From positions 5,162,001-5,226,000 of the forward strand of contig NZ_CP150203.1 of the NCBI RefSeq assembly GCF_037969725.1: a DNA stretch of 64,000 bases, in the 5' to 3' direction. Each line of letters opens with the position of its first letter. The stretch's first letter is position 1. Source of the stretch: Paenibacillus sp. FSL W8-0426. Its GTDB lineage: Bacteria; Bacillota; Bacilli; Paenibacillales; Paenibacillaceae. The translations under genes and the position numbers were made by a program. This document shows, piece after piece, positions 17,040 through 63,321 of the stretch. The notes beneath the pieces are model-generated. The model made no database searches, was not told the DNA's origin, and worked only from the letters and a program-made list of their open reading frames with translations.

Positions 17040-18305
17040 ATGAAGTTTAAAGCACAAAACAAGCAAAATCAACTCATTGAAAACATTACCGTTCATCACT
17101 TGGTCATTGGTGTAGATATCGCTCAAGAAGCCCATGTGGCCCGCGCCGTCAGCTTTCGCGGGATCGCTCTGGGAAATCCGCTCGAATTCGGTAACCATCG
17201 TGAAGGGTTCGATCTGTTCGAACGCTGGATCCAAGATCTACTCAAATCCTACAAACTTAGCAGCGTCATCGTTGGTATGGAGCCGACTGGCCACTACTGG
17301 TTTAGCCTGGCACGTTGGCTTCTCAATTACGGCATAGAGCCCGTCCTGGTTAATCCCCATCTCGTCAAAAAGAACAAGGAAAACCGAGATAATACACCAT
17401 CTAAAAGTGACCATAAAGATGCGCTTGTCATTGCAGACATGGTCAAAAATGGATACTACTCCCCTGTTCGTTTCCATTCCGAAGACTACGAGGAATTACG
17501 TATTCTTATGGCGAATCGAGAGACGGTTACCAAACGCCTCAATGCTGCGGTTAATCAGATTCATCGCTGGGTAGATATTGTTTTCCCTGAACTTCGCCAG
17601 GTCTTTAAAATCCTTACTTGCACCAGTGCCATCGCAACACTCAGGCTCTTTCCTCTACCGAAAGAAATTAGTCGACTAAATACGGAACAAGTCCTTGCCG
17701 GTTGGAAGCAATATGTGAAGCGTCATGCTGGTGTTAAACGTGCTGAACTACTCATCTCACTTGCGAAATCCAGTGTGGGTACTACTCAAGCACTTCAAGC
17801 TTACAAACTCCATCTTAGACAATTAATTGAAGAATATGATCTGGCACAGCGCCAGCTTGAACAAATTGAGCATGAGCTCCGAATCATTCTTGAACGTATT
17901 CCCTATGCACAAAAACTCCTTGAAATACGAGGCATCTATGTCACAAATCTAGCTGGTATACTCGGAGAAGCTGGTGATCTAAGTAGCTATTCGCATGGAA
18001 ATGCTTTGCTTCGTCATGCTGGATTAAATCTAGCCGAGGCTAGCTCAGGGAAATGGAGAGGAAAGATGGTACTCAGTAAACGAGGCCGGCCACGCTTACG
18101 TCATTTTCTTTATCTCATGACGATGAGTATGGTCATGACAAATCCAGAAATACGAGCGGCACATCGATACAATGTAGAGGTAAAGAAACTGAAGAAGATG
18201 AAATCCATTATGAAATTAATCGGTAAAGTAGCACGAATGCTAGTCGCATTGGTTAAAGGCAGTTCCGTTTACGAACCGATCAAAGTATTCCCCCAAGCAG
18301 CATAA
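17040..18305 (+). CDS. IS110-family transposase (DEDD recombinase)
   Basis: 421 residues. N-terminal RuvC-like DEDD domain: GVDIAQEAHVARAV (first Asp near residue 25), GMEPTGHYW (Glu near 80) and SKSDHKDALVIADMV (two Asp near 120). C-terminal Tnp_20 domain: IRGIYVTNLAGILGEAGDLS and LAEASSGKWRG...SKRGRPRLRHFLY, where the catalytic Ser lies. ATG at 17040 follows AGGAGGTCGC. Intact. Confidence 0.92.
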   Translation: MKFKAQNKQNQLIENITVHHLVIGVDIAQEAHVARAVSFRGIALGNPLEFGNHREGFDLFERWIQDLLKSYKLSSVIVGMEPTGHYWFSLARWLLNYGIEPVLVNPHLVKKNKENRDNTPSKSDHKDALVIADMVKNGYYSPVRFHSEDYEELRILMANRETVTKRLNAAVNQIHRWVDIVFPELRQVFKILTCTSAIATLRLFPLPKEISRLNTEQVLAGWKQYVKRHAGVKRAELLISLAKSSVGTTQALQAYKLHLRQLIEEYDLAQRQLEQIEHELRIILERIPYAQKLLEIRGIYVTNLAGILGEAGDLSSYSHGNALLRHAGLNLAEASSGKWRGKMVLSKRGRPRLRHFLYLMTMSMVMTNPEIRAAHRYNVEVKKLKKMKSIMKLIGKVARMLVALVKGSSVYEPIKVFPQAA

Positions 18306-22659: not shown

Positions 22660-22841
22660 TACATGTCATTTTCTCTCCTGATCCTGCCCTACCGGGCCCC
22701 ATTTTTGACTTGATGCTTTTATGATTGTAGTAATCCATGTATCGTGCTAATTCTTGCTTGAAGTGAACTGCGCCACCTTCGAATAACCCCTGGAGAAGAG
22801 ATATTGAAAATGGCAGCTGCTTCATTTGGAGACGTCCCATT
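22660..22841 (-). pseudogene. IS3-family transposase relic
   Basis: An orfA-type HTH piece NGTSPNEAAAIFNISSPGV...RRWRSSLQ (22841-22758) is joined, after a frame change, to an orfB C-terminal piece ELARYMDYYNHKSIKSK (about 22753-22703). The whole integrase core between them is missing. The IS3 tail motif SPVxYR is also frameshifted. Overlaps the last codons of the adjacent PH-domain gene. Confidence 0.6.
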
Positions 22842-24348
22842 GCTCCGATCGTTTTCTAGTAAAGGATAACCAGTCGAATAGTTTATGGACATCAGTAACC
22901 GGGGCATGACGGAGTAAGAACACAGCTCCAGATTTACTCGATGCCACATTTACCCTGAGCGTCGCGATCTGTTTTCCTTCTTGAAATAGCGTCTGAGTGC
23001 TTCTATGCCACTGAACCCTGGATCGGGGGATGAGCACTTGCTGTCTCGAAAAACTACCGAATCGAATGGCAAGTTGTTCTCCTCCCTCCTGTGACCATGC
23101 TGCATTCTTGAATTCCAACACGCCTCTCCACCAGACCACGATAGGGAAAAACAGCACAAGCCAACGCCAATCGGTAGGCAGTAAGACGATAGCAGCTGCT
23201 GTTGCTATCAAGCAGACAAGGGAGGGAAACACAACATAGTTACCATAACCCTTTTTGCTCACGAGGTTCCACGCCTTGGGTAAAGTGAAGTCCGGTAATA
23301 CCCTATTCAACAACGAGGGAAGTTCGGAAACACGAACGAGAGGGAACAAATCTACCGTTTTTTTGTCTTCTTCCGAACTCCCAGACATAACAATACGCAC
23401 GGAAACCATACCGAAAATCTGGTGCAACACATTTTCCGTCACACGCACAGCCTGAATGCGACTGGTCTTGATGACCTTTCGTTTCTTCTCCAAGAACCCG
23501 CGCTCTATCGTTATTTTATCGCCGTCTACCTCTAACCTGAACCCATAATCCAAAAAGAAAGTTGTCATAAAAGCGAGAATCCAGGTGAGGATTACATATA
23601 TTGTAATCATCCCCGCCATATTGGCTAACATGAGTCGGTCGTAAATAAACGCCCAAGCTGAAGTGTCCCTTAGCCATTGATCCCATAGCTTTAAACCGCC
23701 TCCTGCGATAACGAACCAAATCACCAAGAGTTTGCCTCGTGCCAAAGTCATAATAAGCGTACGACTGAGCGACATTCGCAATTCTTCATGAGATAAGACA
23801 TCTGCCTCCGAATGAGGGGCAAGTTTATGTCTGCTTTCGTCTATGCAGGGTATATTTATGTCACTGGGCAATCCCAGCATGGCTTGAATGCGGGCGGCCT
23901 CTGCAACCGTAATGGAACTAAGTACAGCCTCGGGCTCGTCATTTCCTCCAGCTGTTTCTACTTTCAATCGGATCAGACCGAATAATCTATCGTATATACT
24001 GATTGACGTGTCCAATGAAGAAATGCGTTCCTTGGAAATCCAAAGTTTTTGGCGAATCCATAAACCATGCTCGATATAAAGAACTCCCTGTTCAACTCTA
24101 TATAAGAAGCGACGCCAACGCAGCCATGCCAATACGATTAACAATATAATAGCATTGGTGATGATGACACCGGTCAAAAACAAGCGATTGACCTCTTCGC
24201 CGAATAGATTGTTTGCTAGAACAATACAAACAGGGATAAGCGGCAGCAAGCCAGCTAGTTCTTTCCCTGAATGGGTTAGAAAATATAACATCGAAACCGG
24301 GTGCAGACGTCGATCCGTTGCGGTTAGGGTATGTTTAGATCTCCTCAT
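22822..24348 (-). CDS. ydbT: YdbT-like membrane protein with bPH_2 domains
   Basis: 508 residues. Paired membrane helices alternate with bacterial PH (bPH_2/DUF304) domains: GVLYIEHGLWIRQKLWISKERISSLD (first), KITIERGFLEKKRKVIKTSRIQAVRVTENVL (second) and a third near the end (FGSFSRQQVLIPRSRVQW). ATG at 24348 overlaps the end of the preceding ydbS-like gene by 14 nt. Third gene of the TetR-ydbS-ydbT operon. In Bacillus the pair is linked to resistance to some peptides; applying that here is inference. The extreme C-terminus overlaps an IS3 relic and may be altered. Confidence 0.85.
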   Translation of the reverse strand: MRRSKHTLTATDRRLHPVSMLYFLTHSGKELAGLLPLIPVCIVLANNLFGEEVNRLFLTGVIITNAIILLIVLAWLRWRRFLYRVEQGVLYIEHGLWIRQKLWISKERISSLDTSISIYDRLFGLIRLKVETAGGNDEPEAVLSSITVAEAARIQAMLGLPSDINIPCIDESRHKLAPHSEADVLSHEELRMSLSRTLIMTLARGKLLVIWFVIAGGGLKLWDQWLRDTSAWAFIYDRLMLANMAGMITIYVILTWILAFMTTFFLDYGFRLEVDGDKITIERGFLEKKRKVIKTSRIQAVRVTENVLHQIFGMVSVRIVMSGSSEEDKKTVDLFPLVRVSELPSLLNRVLPDFTLPKAWNLVSKKGYGNYVVFPSLVCLIATAAAIVLLPTDWRWLVLFFPIVVWWRGVLEFKNAAWSQEGGEQLAIRFGSFSRQQVLIPRSRVQWHRSTQTLFQEGKQIATLRVNVASSKSGAVFLLRHAPVTDVHKLFDWLSFTRKRSEQWDVSK

Positions 24349-24799
24349 GATTGATATCGGCCCCCTCGGCGATTCGTCTTCGCACACGATCGGCTTCCTC
24401 ATCGGATAATCCCGGGATACAATGGCTGCCTGCGGCTGTGGCGAACGTTACAGTGGATAATCCGTATCTTTTCTCAAGCGGACCCTGCTTCGTGTTTACG
24501 TGCTGAATGCGCGACATTGGAATCAATGTTCGTTTCCGCACCCAAAGGCCATGGTGAAGCTCTACTTCTTTCTCCAAAATCGCATACTGCCAAGAACGAT
24601 ACAGCACGCTCGGAAGTATTACCAGTTCTAAAACAATGATCATGAAAGAGATAACGGCCGTTAATGCTACGATCCATATTGGCCAATCGTATCGTACCGT
24701 CAACAAGCCAAACACGACGACAATGATTAGGCATACCGCGCTGCTCACCCATCCTTCAGTCTTTCGGCAATTAATCGCTCGTGGATCGATACGCTTCAT
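24335..24799 (-). CDS. ydbS: YdbS-like PH-domain membrane protein
   Basis: 154 residues. Two membrane helices (about 19-38 and 42-64) precede one bPH_2 domain with EVELHHGLWVRKRTLIPMSRIQHVN and KRYGLSTVTFATAAGSHCIPGL, diagnostic of YdbS. Start ATG overlaps the TetR stop as ATGA, implying coupled translation. Works with the YdbT-like partner downstream. Confidence 0.88.
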   Translation of the reverse strand: MKRIDPRAINCRKTEGWVSSAVCLIIVVVFGLLTVRYDWPIWIVALTAVISFMIIVLELVILPSVLYRSWQYAILEKEVELHHGLWVRKRTLIPMSRIQHVNTKQGPLEKRYGLSTVTFATAAGSHCIPGLSDEEADRVRRRIAEGADINHEEI

Positions 24800-25428
24800 C
24801 GTCCTTCCACCTTCTCCCCGGTAGCACCCGTGCTAACCTTTGGCTTGCAGACAGCGGCAAGAAATAGCGAGACAAGCTCCTCGGAGAAGCCTGGTATATC
24901 AAGGTTCGGTTGAGCTACAAGTTGAGTAGCCACGCTGTCAATCGCACTGCGTATAGCGGAAGCAGTGACACGAGCAGCCCGTTCAGTGAACGTCCTGAAT
25001 TCCCCTGTCTCTTCCCCCCATTTAAAGATTTCGATAAGAGGTTCTAGAATGGAGTCATCTGTCGAGCCCGCGAAGCGCAGTTTCCCTTCCGGCGTACGAG
25101 CATTCATAACGACTTCGGCTAAGGCAACAATGTAGTCGCAGTTCTCTTTTATAAAAGCTAGATTAGACTCGATATAGGCTGTTAACATGCCAATGGGACT
25201 CGTTTGTCCCTCGACTTTTGGCTGCATAAAACGGAAACCAGCTTCATACACCTCGCGGACGATTTGATCCATCAAATCGTCTTTACTCGCAAAATGGTAG
25301 GTAAATACCCCCTTGCTGATACCCGCGCGTTTAGAGATTTCCCCCACTGAGGCCTTAGAATAACCCAGCGCGGCGATGGTCTCAATCGCCACTTTCATAA
25401 TCTGTTCTTTTCTTTTCGTTTGTTCCAT
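24796..25428 (-). CDS. TetR-family regulator of the ydbST operon
   Basis: 210 residues. N-terminal HTH: EQIMKVAIETIAALGYSKASVGEISKRAGISKGVFTYHFASKDDLMDQIV, the standard TetR pattern; the helical C-terminus binds an unknown ligand. First gene of an operon with ATGA coupling to ydbS. Two palindromes centred on ACGATCGT 55-90 nt upstream are probably its operators, so autoregulation with the membrane genes is inferred. ATG at 25428 is chosen as GAGGTGC precedes it by 10 nt. Confidence 0.88.
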   Translation of the reverse strand: MEQTKRKEQIMKVAIETIAALGYSKASVGEISKRAGISKGVFTYHFASKDDLMDQIVREVYEAGFRFMQPKVEGQTSPIGMLTAYIESNLAFIKENCDYIVALAEVVMNARTPEGKLRFAGSTDDSILEPLIEIFKWGEETGEFRTFTERAARVTASAIRSAIDSVATQLVAQPNLDIPGFSEELVSLFLAAVCKPKVSTGATGEKVEGR

Positions 25429-25480
25429 ACACTCAAGCACCTCGATGCAATATTCTTTAAATCAGAAACCCAACTTGATT

Positions 25481-25520
25481 TAGTACGATCGTACAATTAT
25501 ATTAGCACGATCGTACTAAA
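25481..25520. promoter_or_regulatory. Tandem TetR operator palindromes
   Basis: GTACGATCGTAC at 25483-25494 is a perfect 12-bp palindrome. TTAGCACGATCGTACTAA at 25502-25519 repeats it with one mismatch per arm. Centres are 22 bp apart, two DNA turns, so two dimers could sit on the same face. Upstream of the TetR gene. Confidence 0.75.
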
Positions 25521-25703
25521 GTGTAAATATGTCGTTTCATTTATTCTGGCTAATGACTATCGCAATCAAACGCCCGAATGGCGAAAGGGGGACCATTGCC
25601 TTTAATCAGCAATGATCCCCCTTCTAGATACCCCTTCGTTTCTGCATCCCCAAAAACTTGCCGTTACTTATGCTACGTTTCACCACGTTTGATCTTAAAC
25701 TAC

Positions 25704-25838
25704 CCTGTCCGTTCCGTATTATGAGATCAGCCAGTTTTTCTGTTGACCTTTTTTTGTTCGCAGGAAGTTTATATGGGTAGCTGGGGTAGAACGTCTCTGC
25801 CGTGGGGCTATGACACCGTGAGCTAAAATGTTCACCCC
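25704..25838 (+). ncRNA. Orphan IS110-type noncoding end (guide-RNA-like)
   Basis: Collinear with 34345-34478, the region upstream of the intact IS110 transposase at 34.6 kb. Shared blocks: CCTGyCCGTTC(C)GTATTATGAG with a CAGCCAG / CTG hairpin and T7 (25704-25757); GGTAGCtGGGgtaGAACGT (25776-25794); TGCCGTGGGgCT; AATGTTCACCCC (25827-25838). Span differs by 1 nt between copies while loop segments differ. No transposase or fragment is next to it. Either a solitary relic of a lost element or a retained stand-alone RNA. Confidence 0.6.
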
Positions 25839-25907
25839 CGTTCTTCTCTCCCGACATTAACTCCTTAAGTCAATGAGAAATAGAGTGTTACCTTTGCAGA
25901 TCCAAGA

Positions 25908-26276
25908 TTACTTTTTTTCTTCTTGCAAAGTGACTTCCCCGCCTACGAAACAGGGAATCTCAATATCATCGATGTCCACCATCTTATCCTGTTCTGCATC
26001 GTAATACTCCCCGAATAAAAATAGCGACTCATTTTTCCTACTCAATAAATAAGGGATAATTTTTTCACAAAATTCGGTAACACTTTGAAACATACTCCCT
26101 GGTGCAATCCCCGATTCATCGATAACTAACAATTCTTTGTGAACAATACGAGCAGGGTTGCGATTTAAATGGTACAGTTGAAAAGAGGTATCCTTGCGAT
26201 ACTCTTTATAAATCGGTATTTCTATCTTTTCTATGAAATCTCCATCCGTATAATTCAAGATCAACTTTGCGGTCAT
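25908..26276 (-). CDS. Hypothetical protein
   Basis: 122 residues, soluble, acidic at the end (DKMVDIDDIEIPCFVGGEVTLQEEKK). No family recognised. ATG at 26276 is chosen because AAGGAG lies 7 nt upstream; the ATG at 26282 abuts it. Ends 70 nt from the orphan IS110-type RNA region. Could be an immunity-type or phage-derived small protein, but nothing in it proves this. Confidence 0.6.
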   Translation of the reverse strand: MTAKLILNYTDGDFIEKIEIPIYKEYRKDTSFQLYHLNRNPARIVHKELLVIDESGIAPGSMFQSVTEFCEKIIPYLLSRKNESLFLFGEYYDAEQDKMVDIDDIEIPCFVGGEVTLQEEKK

Positions 26277-26341
26277 CTCCATTCTCCTTTTCGATCCGAA
26301 TAACTCTCCAGTTTGTGAAACAGCGTATCTTGTTCCAAAGA

Positions 26342-26857
26342 CTAATTTAACTCTGCTATTATACGATACAATATATTTTTGCTATCTTCATCCTTGGGCC
26401 GAGGTACTCTACCGATTTGTTCGTAAACCTCCTTTTCCTCTAAAAGTTGTCTCGGATGTAAGACATGAGCTGATATTCCGTTTAACATAAAGCTTTTTGA
26501 TAACAACGAATCCTGTCGCCATACCCACTCTGGTAAGCCATTCATAATAATACTTCCATCATTAGTACTCGATATATAGCCAAATGTAATATCTACGCCA
26601 TCTTTGCTAAAATCAGACTGTCTCCCGCGAAACTGCTCTCTCACAGAAATCTGTTCATAACCAGCTTCGACAAGAGCAAGCTCTAGCTGCTCTCTGTGCT
26701 GTATCCATGTTACCAAGTCTATATCGTCATGTGGACGGGTAACCTTTCCGAGTAAAAAATCGATTGCCCATCCACCGCGCAACCAGAATCTGCATTCAAT
26801 AGTTGCACAAATTGCACTGGGTTGCTCTGTTACAACATTATCGTTCCCGAAGTTCAT
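26342..26857 (-). CDS. Aminoglycoside/lincosamide adenylyltransferase-like protein
   Basis: 171 residues. RFWLRGGWAIDFLLGKVTRPHDDIDLVTW (about 23-51) holds the nucleotidyltransferase GGWAxD ... DDID pattern of the aminoglycoside-2''-adenylyltransferase / Lnu family, and VDITFGYIS supplies the third acidic residue. Such enzymes transfer AMP to a drug hydroxyl. Weak ribosome site at the ATG. Family proven by motif; actual resistance not shown. Confidence 0.8.
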   Translation of the reverse strand: MNFGNDNVVTEQPSAICATIECRFWLRGGWAIDFLLGKVTRPHDDIDLVTWIQHREQLELALVEAGYEQISVREQFRGRQSDFSKDGVDITFGYISSTNDGSIIMNGLPEWVWRQDSLLSKSFMLNGISAHVLHPRQLLEEKEVYEQIGRVPRPKDEDSKNILYRIIAELN

Positions 26858-34344: not shown

Positions 34345-34500
34345 CCTGCCCGTTCGTATTATGAGGTCAACCAGTTCTTTCTGGTTGATCCTTTTTTCAT
34401 TAGCTTTGAGAATGAAGGTAGCCGGGTCGAACGTACCTGCCCGTGGGACTTGATCCCGAGCGCTATATTGTTCACCCCTACTTGTCATGACCATGTTTGA
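34345..34500 (+). ncRNA. Candidate bridge RNA region of the IS110 element
   Basis: Begins with CCTGCCCGTTCGTATTATGA, a GGTCAACCAG / CTGGTTGATC hairpin (34365-34390) and T6, then GGTAGCCGGGTCGAACGT, a GGGACTTGATCCC hairpin and TTGTTCACCCC. Conserved in order and spacing with the orphan copy at 25.7 kb, while loop sequences differ, as expected if loops carry target and donor guides. Transcription is not shown. Confidence 0.55.
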
Positions 34501-34602
34501 GGCTGGTTGGGACATAGATCCCGTATAACAAGCGATGCTATGGAGCGACAAGAGGAAATCACAGGGGCTGCCGGTAAATCTAAATTAGGAAGGTGCATTT
34601 TA

Positions 34603-35811
34603 ATGAATCCAGTGATTGGCCTGGATATTTCTAAAGGTGAAAGCTATGGGCAAGCCTTTTTAAAGCGAGGCAAACCGTACAGAGGGACGTTTCAATTTGA
34701 ACATACCCAAGAAGGTCTGACGAAGTTACTTCAAGCTATTCAGGATCTTGAACATGCTGCTGGACTACGTCCTACACTACTTCTTGAGGCGACTGGGCAT
34801 TACCAGAGTCCTGTTGTTCAGTTCTTAGAGGAGCATCATTATTTGTACATTGTCATTAATCCGCTTATCTCAAATCGGCTTAGAAAGTCCAGCCTTCGTA
34901 AGGTAAAAACGGATGCCGCTGATGCCTATTTGCTAGGAGAGTTGTACTATAAAGAAGAATTTGAGCCCTTTAAAAAAAGAGGTGTTCAACTGCTTAATTT
35001 GCGTTATCTAACAAGACAATATGAGTCTCTTTCAAAGATGTGTGTACAAATTAAACTGCAGTTTCAAGCTGTTCTTGATCAAGTTTTCCCTACGTACAAA
35101 AGTGTTTTTGGAGATATCTATTCTCATATTTCACTTCGATTTCTAAGTGAATTTCCAACTTCATATTTGGTACTACAATCGGACGAAGGAATGCTTAAAT
35201 CCAAATTCAAAGAGCTGCTTTCCTCAAGACGAGGACGATCAGAGAATTGGATCTGTGTGCGAGTTAAGCGTCTACTTCTTGCGGCAAAACAAAATCCTTT
35301 TCAGCAGAATATGTACTCTAGTCACTTGGTTAACCTGAGAGTTTTGATTTCGCTCATCCTTCAGTACCAAGAACATCTATCTCAATTGGAAAAGAACATA
35401 GATGCTCTCGCTGAAGAAATTCAAGAATATGATTTAATCCAGTCGATTCCCGGTATAGGTCCTAAAATTGCGGCAACAATTTTATCGGAAATTGGAGAAG
35501 TCGACCGATTTGATCATCCAAAGAAACTAGTAGCCTTTGCGGGCATTGACCCGAGTGTATTCGCATCTGGAAAGTTTACGGCAACACGCAATCGAATTAC
35601 CAAACGTGGTTCACGACAACTTCGTTATGCTCTAGTTATGGCCGTCCAGTGTGGACTCATCCGCTCTCGAAATCTGCGACTTAAAGATTTTTATGATCGC
35701 AAAAGAGCCGAAGGAAAGCCACATAAAGTAGCTTTAATCGCATGCGCAAATAAGCTGGTTCATTGGCTTTATGTCATCCTGAAAAGTAAAAAAACTTTCC
35801 GCGCTGTCTAA
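34603..35811 (+). CDS. IS110-family transposase (DEDD recombinase)
   Basis: 402 residues. N-terminal DEDD domain: VIGLDISKGESYGQAF (Asp near residue 7), LLEATGHYQSPV (Glu near 63), KVKTDAADAYLLGEL (Asp pair near 105). C-terminal Tnp_20: IPGIGPKIAATILSEIGEVDRFDHPKKLVAFAGIDPSVFASGKF and RNRITKRGSRQLRYALVMA. ATG at 34603 is used because TTAGGAAGG lies upstream and homology begins there. Intact. Confidence 0.92.
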   Translation: MNPVIGLDISKGESYGQAFLKRGKPYRGTFQFEHTQEGLTKLLQAIQDLEHAAGLRPTLLLEATGHYQSPVVQFLEEHHYLYIVINPLISNRLRKSSLRKVKTDAADAYLLGELYYKEEFEPFKKRGVQLLNLRYLTRQYESLSKMCVQIKLQFQAVLDQVFPTYKSVFGDIYSHISLRFLSEFPTSYLVLQSDEGMLKSKFKELLSSRRGRSENWICVRVKRLLLAAKQNPFQQNMYSSHLVNLRVLISLILQYQEHLSQLEKNIDALAEEIQEYDLIQSIPGIGPKIAATILSEIGEVDRFDHPKKLVAFAGIDPSVFASGKFTATRNRITKRGSRQLRYALVMAVQCGLIRSRNLRLKDFYDRKRAEGKPHKVALIACANKLVHWLYVILKSKKTFRAV

Positions 35812-35825
35812 GCACTCATATTGGT

Positions 35826-35862
35826 ATAACCTTCCAAAACAAAGAAATTGGAGGGTTATTTG
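35826..35862 (+). terminator. Terminator of the IS110 transposase gene
   Basis: ATAACCTTCCAA pairs with TTGGAGGGTTAT (one G-U) and is followed by TTGT. It starts 15 nt after the stop. Confidence 0.65.
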
Positions 35863-35990
35863 TCATGCTTAATTTTACTATACCACATGACTTAAGTTCA
35901 TTTTGCTGGTAATCTTGACAAGCTATTAGCTGGTATAGCTTGTTAGCTTAATGAATTAACTGGCGATTACCCGTTAGACATATGCCTAAT

Positions 35991-62085: not shown

Positions 62086-63321
62086 TCAGCTTGCTTGCTT
62101 TTCTACTTTTTCAGGCAGACGGAATGCTGTTTTGTTTTTCATCATGCCGTAGATGATGTTAACTAACCGCCGCATCACACATACCAATGCTTGCGTTGGC
62201 GTTTTTCCTTCTTCTTTCTTGCGGTTGAAATACTCATAAAACAGCGTATTGCGCGGCTTTTTGCTCCCTTTTGAAACTTGAACCTGTTGAACAGCCAGAT
62301 TGTAAAACAGTCCATGCAACACTCGATTGCCTTGTCTGCTTTTCAGATTGACGTGCTTACCACCCGAACCCACTTTTACAGGGGCAATTCCGGCAAAACG
62401 AGCCAGCTTATCTGCACTAGTGAAGCGGTATATATCGCCTATTTCCGCTACCAATGCAGAAGATGTTACCAGATCTATGCCCGGCATTGTCTCCAGTTGA
62501 AGATCGAGTAGCTTCATCATGTTATGTAATTCGCCTTCCACTCGGACGATTTCCTTCTTGTTGAACCGGATGTCGCGGACATGGCTACGAATGAGAAAGT
62601 CACGCTGCTCCTGATACGTTCGGGTTGTGTCGCCATCTGCCTGAATCCACGCTAACAATTGCTCAGCCTTCCGGGTGGAACAAGCGTTGTTGCTGGTCAG
62701 CCGCAGAAAATGAGCCAGTGATTCTACTGTTTCGCCTTTTAGCAAATAAGGCGATGGGTACTTGTGCCAAAATGACAGCGCACATTTGCCATCCAGCTCA
62801 CTAAAAAACTTCTTGTAACTTGGATAGTGGTAGCTGAGCTGCATGTGCAATTGGTTTTTAAGCGAGGTCAATGCCTTAATCAAGCCATTTCTCCTCGTCA
62901 CCAATTGACCAATCGTCCAGTATACGTCCTGCGGGTTTGCGCCCGGTAACATGTCCAGTTTGTTCAGCAGGATTCTGGCTACGCACTCCGCATCCCAGCT
63001 ATCGCTCTTTTGCGTGGTTGGATAGCTCTTGCGCTCGGCATACGACAGAGCAGAGTTGACCTCTTTCACCTGTTGCTTCTGATCCAGCAAGTACACAGCC
63101 AGCGAACGACCATAGCCGCCAACGTCTTCTAATCCATAGATCGGCGTAATGCCTCGTTTCTTGAACCGCTTCACAAATGCAATCAGTTCAGGGAATGCCG
63201 ATGGCTTATTTTCAAACGTAACTTCGCCTAATTTCTCATGCCAGCAATTGACCACAACTGCCGTATGGGTCTTTTTATGCAGGTCAATACCTATGTAGAT
63301 ATGCTTCGCTTTGTAGTGCAT
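62086..63321 (-). CDS. IS110-family transposase (DEDD recombinase)
   Basis: 411 residues. HIYIGIDLHKKTHTAVVVN (first Asp), IYGLEDVGGYGRSLA (Glu), TTQKSDSWDAECVARIL (two Asp), then the Tnp_20 domain MPGIDLVTSSALVAEIGDIYRFTSADKLARFAGIAPVKVGSGGK and KSRQGNRVLHGLFYNLAVQQ with the catalytic Ser. ATG at 63321 follows AAGGAAGG. Intact; different subgroup from the two other IS110-type transposases here. Confidence 0.92.
   Translation of the reverse strand: MHYKAKHIYIGIDLHKKTHTAVVVNCWHEKLGEVTFENKPSAFPELIAFVKRFKKRGITPIYGLEDVGGYGRSLAVYLLDQKQQVKEVNSALSYAERKSYPTTQKSDSWDAECVARILLNKLDMLPGANPQDVYWTIGQLVTRRNGLIKALTSLKNQLHMQLSYHYPSYKKFFSELDGKCALSFWHKYPSPYLLKGETVESLAHFLRLTSNNACSTRKAEQLLAWIQADGDTTRTYQEQRDFLIRSHVRDIRFNKKEIVRVEGELHNMMKLLDLQLETMPGIDLVTSSALVAEIGDIYRFTSADKLARFAGIAPVKVGSGGKHVNLKSRQGNRVLHGLFYNLAVQQVQVSKGSKKPRNTLFYEYFNRKKEEGKTPTQALVCVMRRLVNIIYGMMKNKTAFRLPEKVEKQAS

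What the first reader, a model, noticed from the sequence alone, without database searches (positions are those of the whole stretch)
25704..25838. Orphan IS110-type guide-RNA region with no transposase
A 135-nt stretch is collinear with the noncoding end upstream of the intact IS110 transposase at 34.6 kb (34345-34478, 134 nt). The first block matches at 29 of 32 positions plus one gap, two further blocks match, and spacing is kept to 1 nt, while loop segments differ. IS110 elements are known to encode a bridge RNA there whose loops pick donor and target. A solitary copy between a TetR operon and a hypothetical gene is either a relic of a lost element or a retained RNA that a transposase elsewhere could use in trans.
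Basis: partly seen in the sequence, partly recalled or inferred. Interest (0 to 1): 0.75.

Follow-up and report, generated by a model that had tools for sequence, protein, structure and literature searches.

The report
Decayed IS110 bridge-RNA end remnant
A 124-base stretch between two genes of a Paenibacillus chromosome is a decayed fragment of the left end of an IS110 jumping gene of another subfamily than the intact copy nearby; it was likely stranded when the rest of that element was deleted, and it is ordinary rather than a working guide RNA as far as its sequence shows.

Summary
The similarity is real: window 25716-25842 scores 68.5 bits (E 4.6e-13) with a covariance model built from 42 IS110 left ends, this remnant left out. 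The first 12 nt of the reported stretch are not IS110: they belong to the left half of the insertion target, a host repeat that other genomes carry unoccupied. The remnant is not a copy of the IS110 at 34.6 kb; it groups (98/94) with left ends of a second subfamily whose intact transposases in other genomes are 57-58% identical to the window's. It stops after the target-binding loop. No donor-binding loop, transposase or right end follows; the -35 box of the circle promoter belongs to the missing right end; guide and hairpins are damaged and it folds no better than shuffles (z -0.5). Two more stranded left ends lie in this genome and sit at the same places in a same-species genome that lacks an intact element of this group. 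Stranded left and right ends are similarly common at good scores (9 of 34, 6 of 29); truncation points scatter. Verdict: relic; use in trans unsupported.

The parts
25652..25715 (+). Host intergenic repeat, ending in the left half of the insertion target (about 25699-25715, AACTACCCTGTCCGTTCC)
   Evidence: Matches to this stretch in many other genomes; in the 5 loci inspected (L332-L335, L337) the repeat runs on without any IS110 left end; target left half defined from the flanks of intact elements.
25716..25842 (+). Remnant of an IS110 left end (bridge-RNA 5' hairpin and target-binding loop); similarity to intact relatives ends near 25839
   Evidence: Covariance-model match 68.5 bits, E 4.6e-13; alignment to intact second-subfamily left ends; clade support 98/94.
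25717..25722 (+). TATTAT, the left-end half (-10) of the promoter that forms in the circular element
   Evidence: TATTAT is invariant in 26 aligned left ends; no + strand promoter-like site found in 25600-25920.
25723..25750 (+). Degenerate 5' hairpin (three single-base deletions against the model)
   Evidence: alignment; the MFE fold of the remnant does not form it.
25776..25842 (+). Degenerate target-binding loop
   Evidence: alignment.
25795..25802 (+). Left target guide with a one-base deletion (CTCTGCCG; tnp-linked sisters have CTCTGCCCG)
34356..35938 (+). Intact IS110 element of the first subfamily, left-end start to right-end end (comparison, not the parent)
   Evidence: Ends from 99.7% identity to the second copy at C1:5.815 Mb and from right and left junctions of relatives.
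34603..35811 (+). IS110 transposase (402 aa), DEDD_Tnp_IS110 plus Transposase_20
35915..35920 (+). TTGACA, the right-end half (-35) of the circle promoter, missing from the remnant
   Evidence: Invariant in 26 aligned right ends.

Best explanation
Window 25716-25839 is a truncated and decayed left end of an IS110-family element of a second subfamily, lying at the insertion point of that family's host target repeat, and it was likely left behind when the rest of the element (donor-binding loop, transposase, right end) was deleted. Shown: family resemblance, subfamily, target left half, absence of the remaining parts, structural damage. Inferred: that a full element once stood here and that a deletion removed it; no genome examined holds the intact insertion at this place. 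As it stands it would not make a bridge RNA: the -35 box comes from the right end in the circular form, the donor-binding loop is gone, and the target guide is damaged.
For: Covariance model from tnp-linked left ends scores it at E 4.6e-13. The model's structure shows covariation: 96.8% of cells paired, 9 pairs with changes on both sides, 0 of 500 shuffles reach this. The left target guide of tnp-linked left ends matches the element's own left flank at 7.19 of 9 positions against 5.77 when shuffled, highest shuffle 6.27, 37 distinct pairs, so this region is the target-binding part of a bridge RNA. The remnant groups with the second subfamily (98/94) on a long branch (0.23, against 0 to 0.036 for the tnp-linked members of that clade). 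Its fold is no better than shuffles (z -0.51, 59 of 200 at least as good; intact copy z -4.01, 0 of 200). Similarity stops after the target-binding loop where intact sisters continue into the donor loop. No right-end motif within 1.2 kb (best 11 mismatches of 24, shuffles mean 10.2); no transposase match at E <= 0.01 downstream. In the same-species genome G064 window 22690-25889, which includes the remnant, is replaced by 208 bp while both sides are 98.8-99.5% identical. Stranded right ends occur too, as expected of decay.
Against: No genome examined shows the intact insertion at this site, so the deletion is inferred. The right half of the target was not recognised next to the remnant. At low scores left ends lack a transposase somewhat more often than right ends (34 of 79 versus 11 of 38; at least one of the 34, G010:C18, has a divergent transposase piece), and truncation points are denser in the first 260 nt than in the gene. 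Remnants B and C are kept in two strains, which is neutral inheritance or, less likely, retention.
Confidence: 0.93

Rival explanations
1. A retained RNA carrying only a target-binding loop, which an IS110 recombinase elsewhere in the genome uses in trans together with a donor loop from a full bridge RNA.
For: Separate target-loop and donor-loop RNAs of IS621 support recombination in vitro (PMC11208158, passage seen). The same-species remnant B in G064 still has an undamaged guide (CTCTGCCCG, 7 of 9 matches to its flank, as in its intact sister L198). Remnant B folds better than shuffles (z -2.82, 2 of 200).
Against: Remnant A has a broken guide and hairpin, no + strand promoter-like site, and folds like shuffled sequence. 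G064, which keeps B and C, has only one transposase match at E <= 0.001 (34% over a fragment) and no right-end match. B's left end differs between strains by 3 substitutions and 1 indel in 130 columns, no clear slowdown against 3 in 61 upstream and 8 in 111 downstream. Right ends are stranded too.
Confidence: 0.03
2. A miniature non-autonomous IS110 element with both ends, moved by a transposase in trans.
For: Its left junction is exact at the target. A few left-end fragments in other genomes are followed at once by target-right-half-like sequence, L276 for example; 5 of 50 pass the score threshold.
Against: No right-end motif within 1.2 kb of remnants A, B or C, A is not among the five, and the chance rate of that motif is 29 of 843 windows. 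Truncation points of the 45 fragments with an intact left-end start spread from +43 to +420 with no common right boundary.
Confidence: 0.02
3. Chance likeness through a shared terminator-like hairpin.
For: The 5' hairpin is followed by a T run and resembles a terminator; three weak hits in other genomes (L311, L314, L316) look like such hairpins in another repeat.
Against: 68.5 bits over all 127 model positions, E 4.6e-13; no terminator-like site found at the remnant; the left junction sits at the family's insertion point.
Confidence: 0.01

Closest known systems
IS110-group left ends encoding bridge RNA (IS621; Durrant et al. 2024, PMC11208160, passages seen)
   Same: 5' hairpin, target-binding loop with a left target guide that copies the target, insertion in an intergenic repeat, -10 half of a circle promoter in the left end.
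   Different: No donor-binding loop, no transposase, no right end, no -35; guide and hairpins mutated.
Intact second-subfamily IS110 elements in other genomes of the family (L198, L201; also L205, L206)
   Same: Sister left ends: 73-81% identical to A, 81-89% to B.
   Different: They continue through the donor loop into a transposase matching over residues 1-399.
The intact IS110 at window 34356-35938
   Same: Same family, same kind of target repeat, collinear left end.
   Different: First subfamily; 65% identical to A over the model region; complete, with a second copy at C1:5.815 Mb.
Truncated insertion-sequence remnants in general
   Same: Partial element end, no open frame, decayed.
   Different: Nothing of note; the kept part happens to cover a target-binding loop.

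Membership tests
Complete IS110 element | Recombinase with DEDD_Tnp_IS110 and Transposase_20 domains beside the left end | tested here: not met
   No transposase match at E <= 0.01 downstream of the remnant; the next gene (25908-26282) has no Pfam match.
Complete IS110 element | Left end with the family's bridge-RNA sequence and structure | tested here: met
   In part: model positions 1-127 matched, 68.5 bits; the donor-loop part is absent.
Complete IS110 element | Right end (TTGACAAGCTATTAGCTGGTATAG) | tested here: not met
   Best 11 mismatches of 24 within 1.2 kb, like shuffled sequence.
Complete IS110 element | Inserted at the family's target: left half before the left end, right half after the right end | tested here: inconclusive
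   Left half met; right half not recognised.
Functional bridge RNA | Target-binding loop with a guide matching the target | tested here: not met
   Guide has a one-base deletion; 4 of 9 ungapped matches to its own flank (counted by eye from the sequences printed); tnp-linked left ends average 7.19.
Functional bridge RNA | Donor-binding loop | tested here: not met
   Similarity ends at about +124, before the donor loop of intact sisters.
Functional bridge RNA | Promoter: -35 in the right end, -10 in the left end, joined in the circle | tested here: not met
   TATTAT kept; no right end; no + strand promoter-like site in 25600-25920. Circle promoter known from PMC11208160 (passages).
Functional bridge RNA | Expressed and bound by a recombinase | not testable with these tools
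   No RNA-seq or binding data available here.

The most novel reading that the evidence does not exclude
Stranded target-binding loops such as remnants A, B and C are natural split guides: short RNAs without donor loop or transposase that redirect a resident or incoming IS110 recombinase to new targets, as separated loops of IS621 do in vitro.
Probability: 0.02. Interest if true: 0.8.

Novelty: new member of a known kind. Interest (0 to 1): 0.2.

Why it matters
It settles a tempting reading: a lone bridge-RNA-like region is not by itself evidence of a guide working in trans. Useful by-products are a Paenibacillaceae IS110 group with a clear guide-to-target match, both junctions defined, a circle promoter visible in the sequence and an intergenic repeat as target, plus a list of stranded ends to filter out when bridge RNAs are predicted genome-wide.

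Tried and rejected
Rfam scan of the window: no match. Pattern count of the target in the own genome: 20 places with up to 2 mismatches against 8 for the reversed control; only the best few are recognisable target repeats. Search for the TetR-to-remnant region in the family: G190 carries the TetR region at 87% but no left end after it, so no intact insertion was found. Phage records: no match to remnant B; plasmid records: 28 records, best listed about 79% identical, not pursued. Common right boundary of stranded left ends: rejected, endpoints spread. Left ends kept more than right ends: not clear (9 of 34 versus 6 of 29 at 45 bits or more; 34 of 79 versus 11 of 38 at about 26 bits or more). 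Two of the 9 left ends are the same remnants in G064, so 7 distinct. All 6 right ends lack the transposase except for 0 to about 40 residues of its tail, and two of them (G070, G005) look like the same remnant. Literature: five searches; in the listings shown I saw no title about bridge-RNA ends without a transposase, and a search for IS110 + bridge RNA + Paenibacillus found none; the library lacks most subscription journals.

Full report
What is there. Window 25716-25842 matches, over all 127 positions, a covariance model built from 42 left ends of IS110 elements found beside transposases (alignment, model); the remnant was not used to build it. It scores 68.5 bits, E 4.6e-13, and the only other match in the window at E <= 1 is the intact element at 34356-34482. 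The model's helices covary: 96.8% of cells paired, 9 pairs changed on both sides, 0 of 500 shuffles as high (the structure came from the fold of one of the sequences, which favours it on cells paired). The host is a Paenibacillus: genome G062, given as the same genus, has the contig length of the Paenibacillus brasilensis record.

Element borders. Flanks of relatives show the left end starting at ...CCTGCCCGTTC|GTATTATG and the right end stopping at ...GCTGGTATAG|CTTAATGA. What lies left of GTATTATG is target, so 25704-25715 of the reported stretch is host sequence. The same upstream repeat occurs without any insertion in the 5 loci inspected from other genomes. The target is an intergenic repeat, in places a near-palindrome.

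This is a bridge-RNA target-binding region. In 37 distinct pairs the nine-base guide before TGGG agrees with the element's own left flank at 7.19 positions on average, against 5.77 when guides are shuffled among elements (highest of 2000 shuffles 6.27; one left end, L069, could not be parsed). A few pairs match poorly (down to 1 of 9 in L113, whose left end carries a deletion, and 3-4 of 9 in four others where the extraction is off by a base or the flank differs). Established knowledge used: IS110 bridge RNAs, 5' hairpin, target and donor loops, promoter across the joined ends of the circle (PMC11208160, passages; PMC11208158, passages; PMC11187229, passages).

Which element. Over the model region remnant A is 81% identical to L198 and 65% to the intact window element; a tree puts A with L198, L201, L199, L203 and remnant B (98/94). 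L198 and L201 carry transposases matching over residues 1-399 at 58% and 57% identity to the window's, with both IS110 Pfam domains. In L199 and L203 the transposase matches in pieces. So the parent is a second subfamily, and the 34.6-kb element is a cousin.

What is missing. Intact sisters run on through ...CACCCCCTACTTGTAGAAACATGTTTGAGGCTGG... into the donor loop; A stops at CACCCCC and B six bases later. No right-end motif lies within 1.2 kb of A, B or C, best 11 mismatches of 24 each, shuffles 10.2-10.6 on average. No transposase match follows. TTGACA is invariant in 26 right ends and TATTAT in 26 left ends; side by side in the circle they give a -35/-10 pair 18 bases apart (counted by eye). 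The remnant keeps only TATTAT, and no + strand promoter-like site is found around it.

Decay. Against the model A has four single-base deletions, three in the 5' hairpin and one in the guide, and three non-standard pairs. It folds no better than shuffles (z -0.51, 59 of 200), while the intact copy has z -4.01 and remnant B -2.82. Its branch is 0.23 against 0 to 0.036 for the tnp-linked clade members; remnant C has 0.22 against 0.003 for its neighbour L053.

Not alone. The genome has two complete copies, two further stranded left ends (B and C; no transposase frame nearby) and a right end with about 30 residues of transposase tail at C1:1672597. In the same-species genome G064, B and C lie at the same places with 98.8% and 99.0% identical surroundings, though G064 has only one weak transposase fragment match and no right-end match. 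B changed by 3 substitutions and 1 indel in 130 columns between strains, its flanks by 3 in 61 and 8 in 111; C by 1 in 160: no sign of strong constraint, though the numbers are small. A itself is absent from G064: window 22690-25889 is replaced there by 208 bp.

Population of remnants. In 75 genomes of the genus, left-end matches of 45 bits or more lack a transposase in 9 of 34 cases and right-end matches in 6 of 29; at about 26 bits or more 34 of 79 and 11 of 38 (rows typed as told in Tried and rejected). Direct inspection confirmed the 9 left ends and found at most about 40 residues of tail at the 6 right ends. From a search of 394 family genomes and the genus loci, 58 left-end places without transposase match reduce to 50 after dropping 8 duplicates; 45 have an intact start, and their truncation points run from +43 to +420, mostly below +200. 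There is no pile-up at the end of the target loop (4 of 45 in +120 to +139).

Judgement. The parts kept and lost, the exact left junction, the decay and the stranded right ends fit a deletion remnant. Use in trans is not excluded, because separated loops work in vitro for IS621, but nothing here favours it for A.

Noticed in passing
L021, L024, L026, L028, L037 (own genome); L332-L335, L337 (other genomes): The IS110 target is an intergenic repeat, in places a near-palindrome (TCATTAAACTA-TCCTGTCCGT-TAGTTTAATGA) or a terminator-like unit with such ends; many unoccupied copies exist. Its own nature was not worked out.
   Followed up: partly
L276, L211, L253 and L312 (other genomes of the family): Short left-end fragments followed almost at once by sequence like the target's right half, as if internal deletions had made miniature elements; in L211 and L253 the break lies at the target guide. 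5 of 50 fragments pass the motif threshold against 29 of 843 control windows; L312 is just below it.
   Followed up: partly
L143 (G009:C23:143016): A left end complete through the donor loop, with no transposase, running straight into an intact target repeat (TACCCTGGCCCGTTAGTTTAATGA); a better candidate for a trans-acting RNA than the window's remnant.
   Followed up: no
loci: Truncation points of left-end-bearing copies look denser in the non-coding left end than in the gene; blastn endpoints in divergent copies make this uncertain.
   Followed up: no
window 22680-22690 and 25890: The block 22690-25889 (PH-like membrane operon, TetR gene, remnant A) is absent from G064; its left junction falls right after GATCCTGCCC, a target-like string, and G064 continues with GTT. 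May be chance.
   Followed up: partly
window 17103-18269 (+) and 62119-63237 (-): Two further, distant IS110-family transposases, 23% and 26% identical to the one at 34.6 kb.
   Followed up: partly
L191 (G033) and L192 (G014): The same 57-60-nt left-end stub with the same right neighbour sequence in two species, so stubs can be inherited vertically.
   Followed up: no
window 26342-26857 (-): Nucleotidyltransferase-like gene matching Pfam Aminoglyc_resit (PF10706), E 7.8e-16; no function was tested.
   Followed up: no
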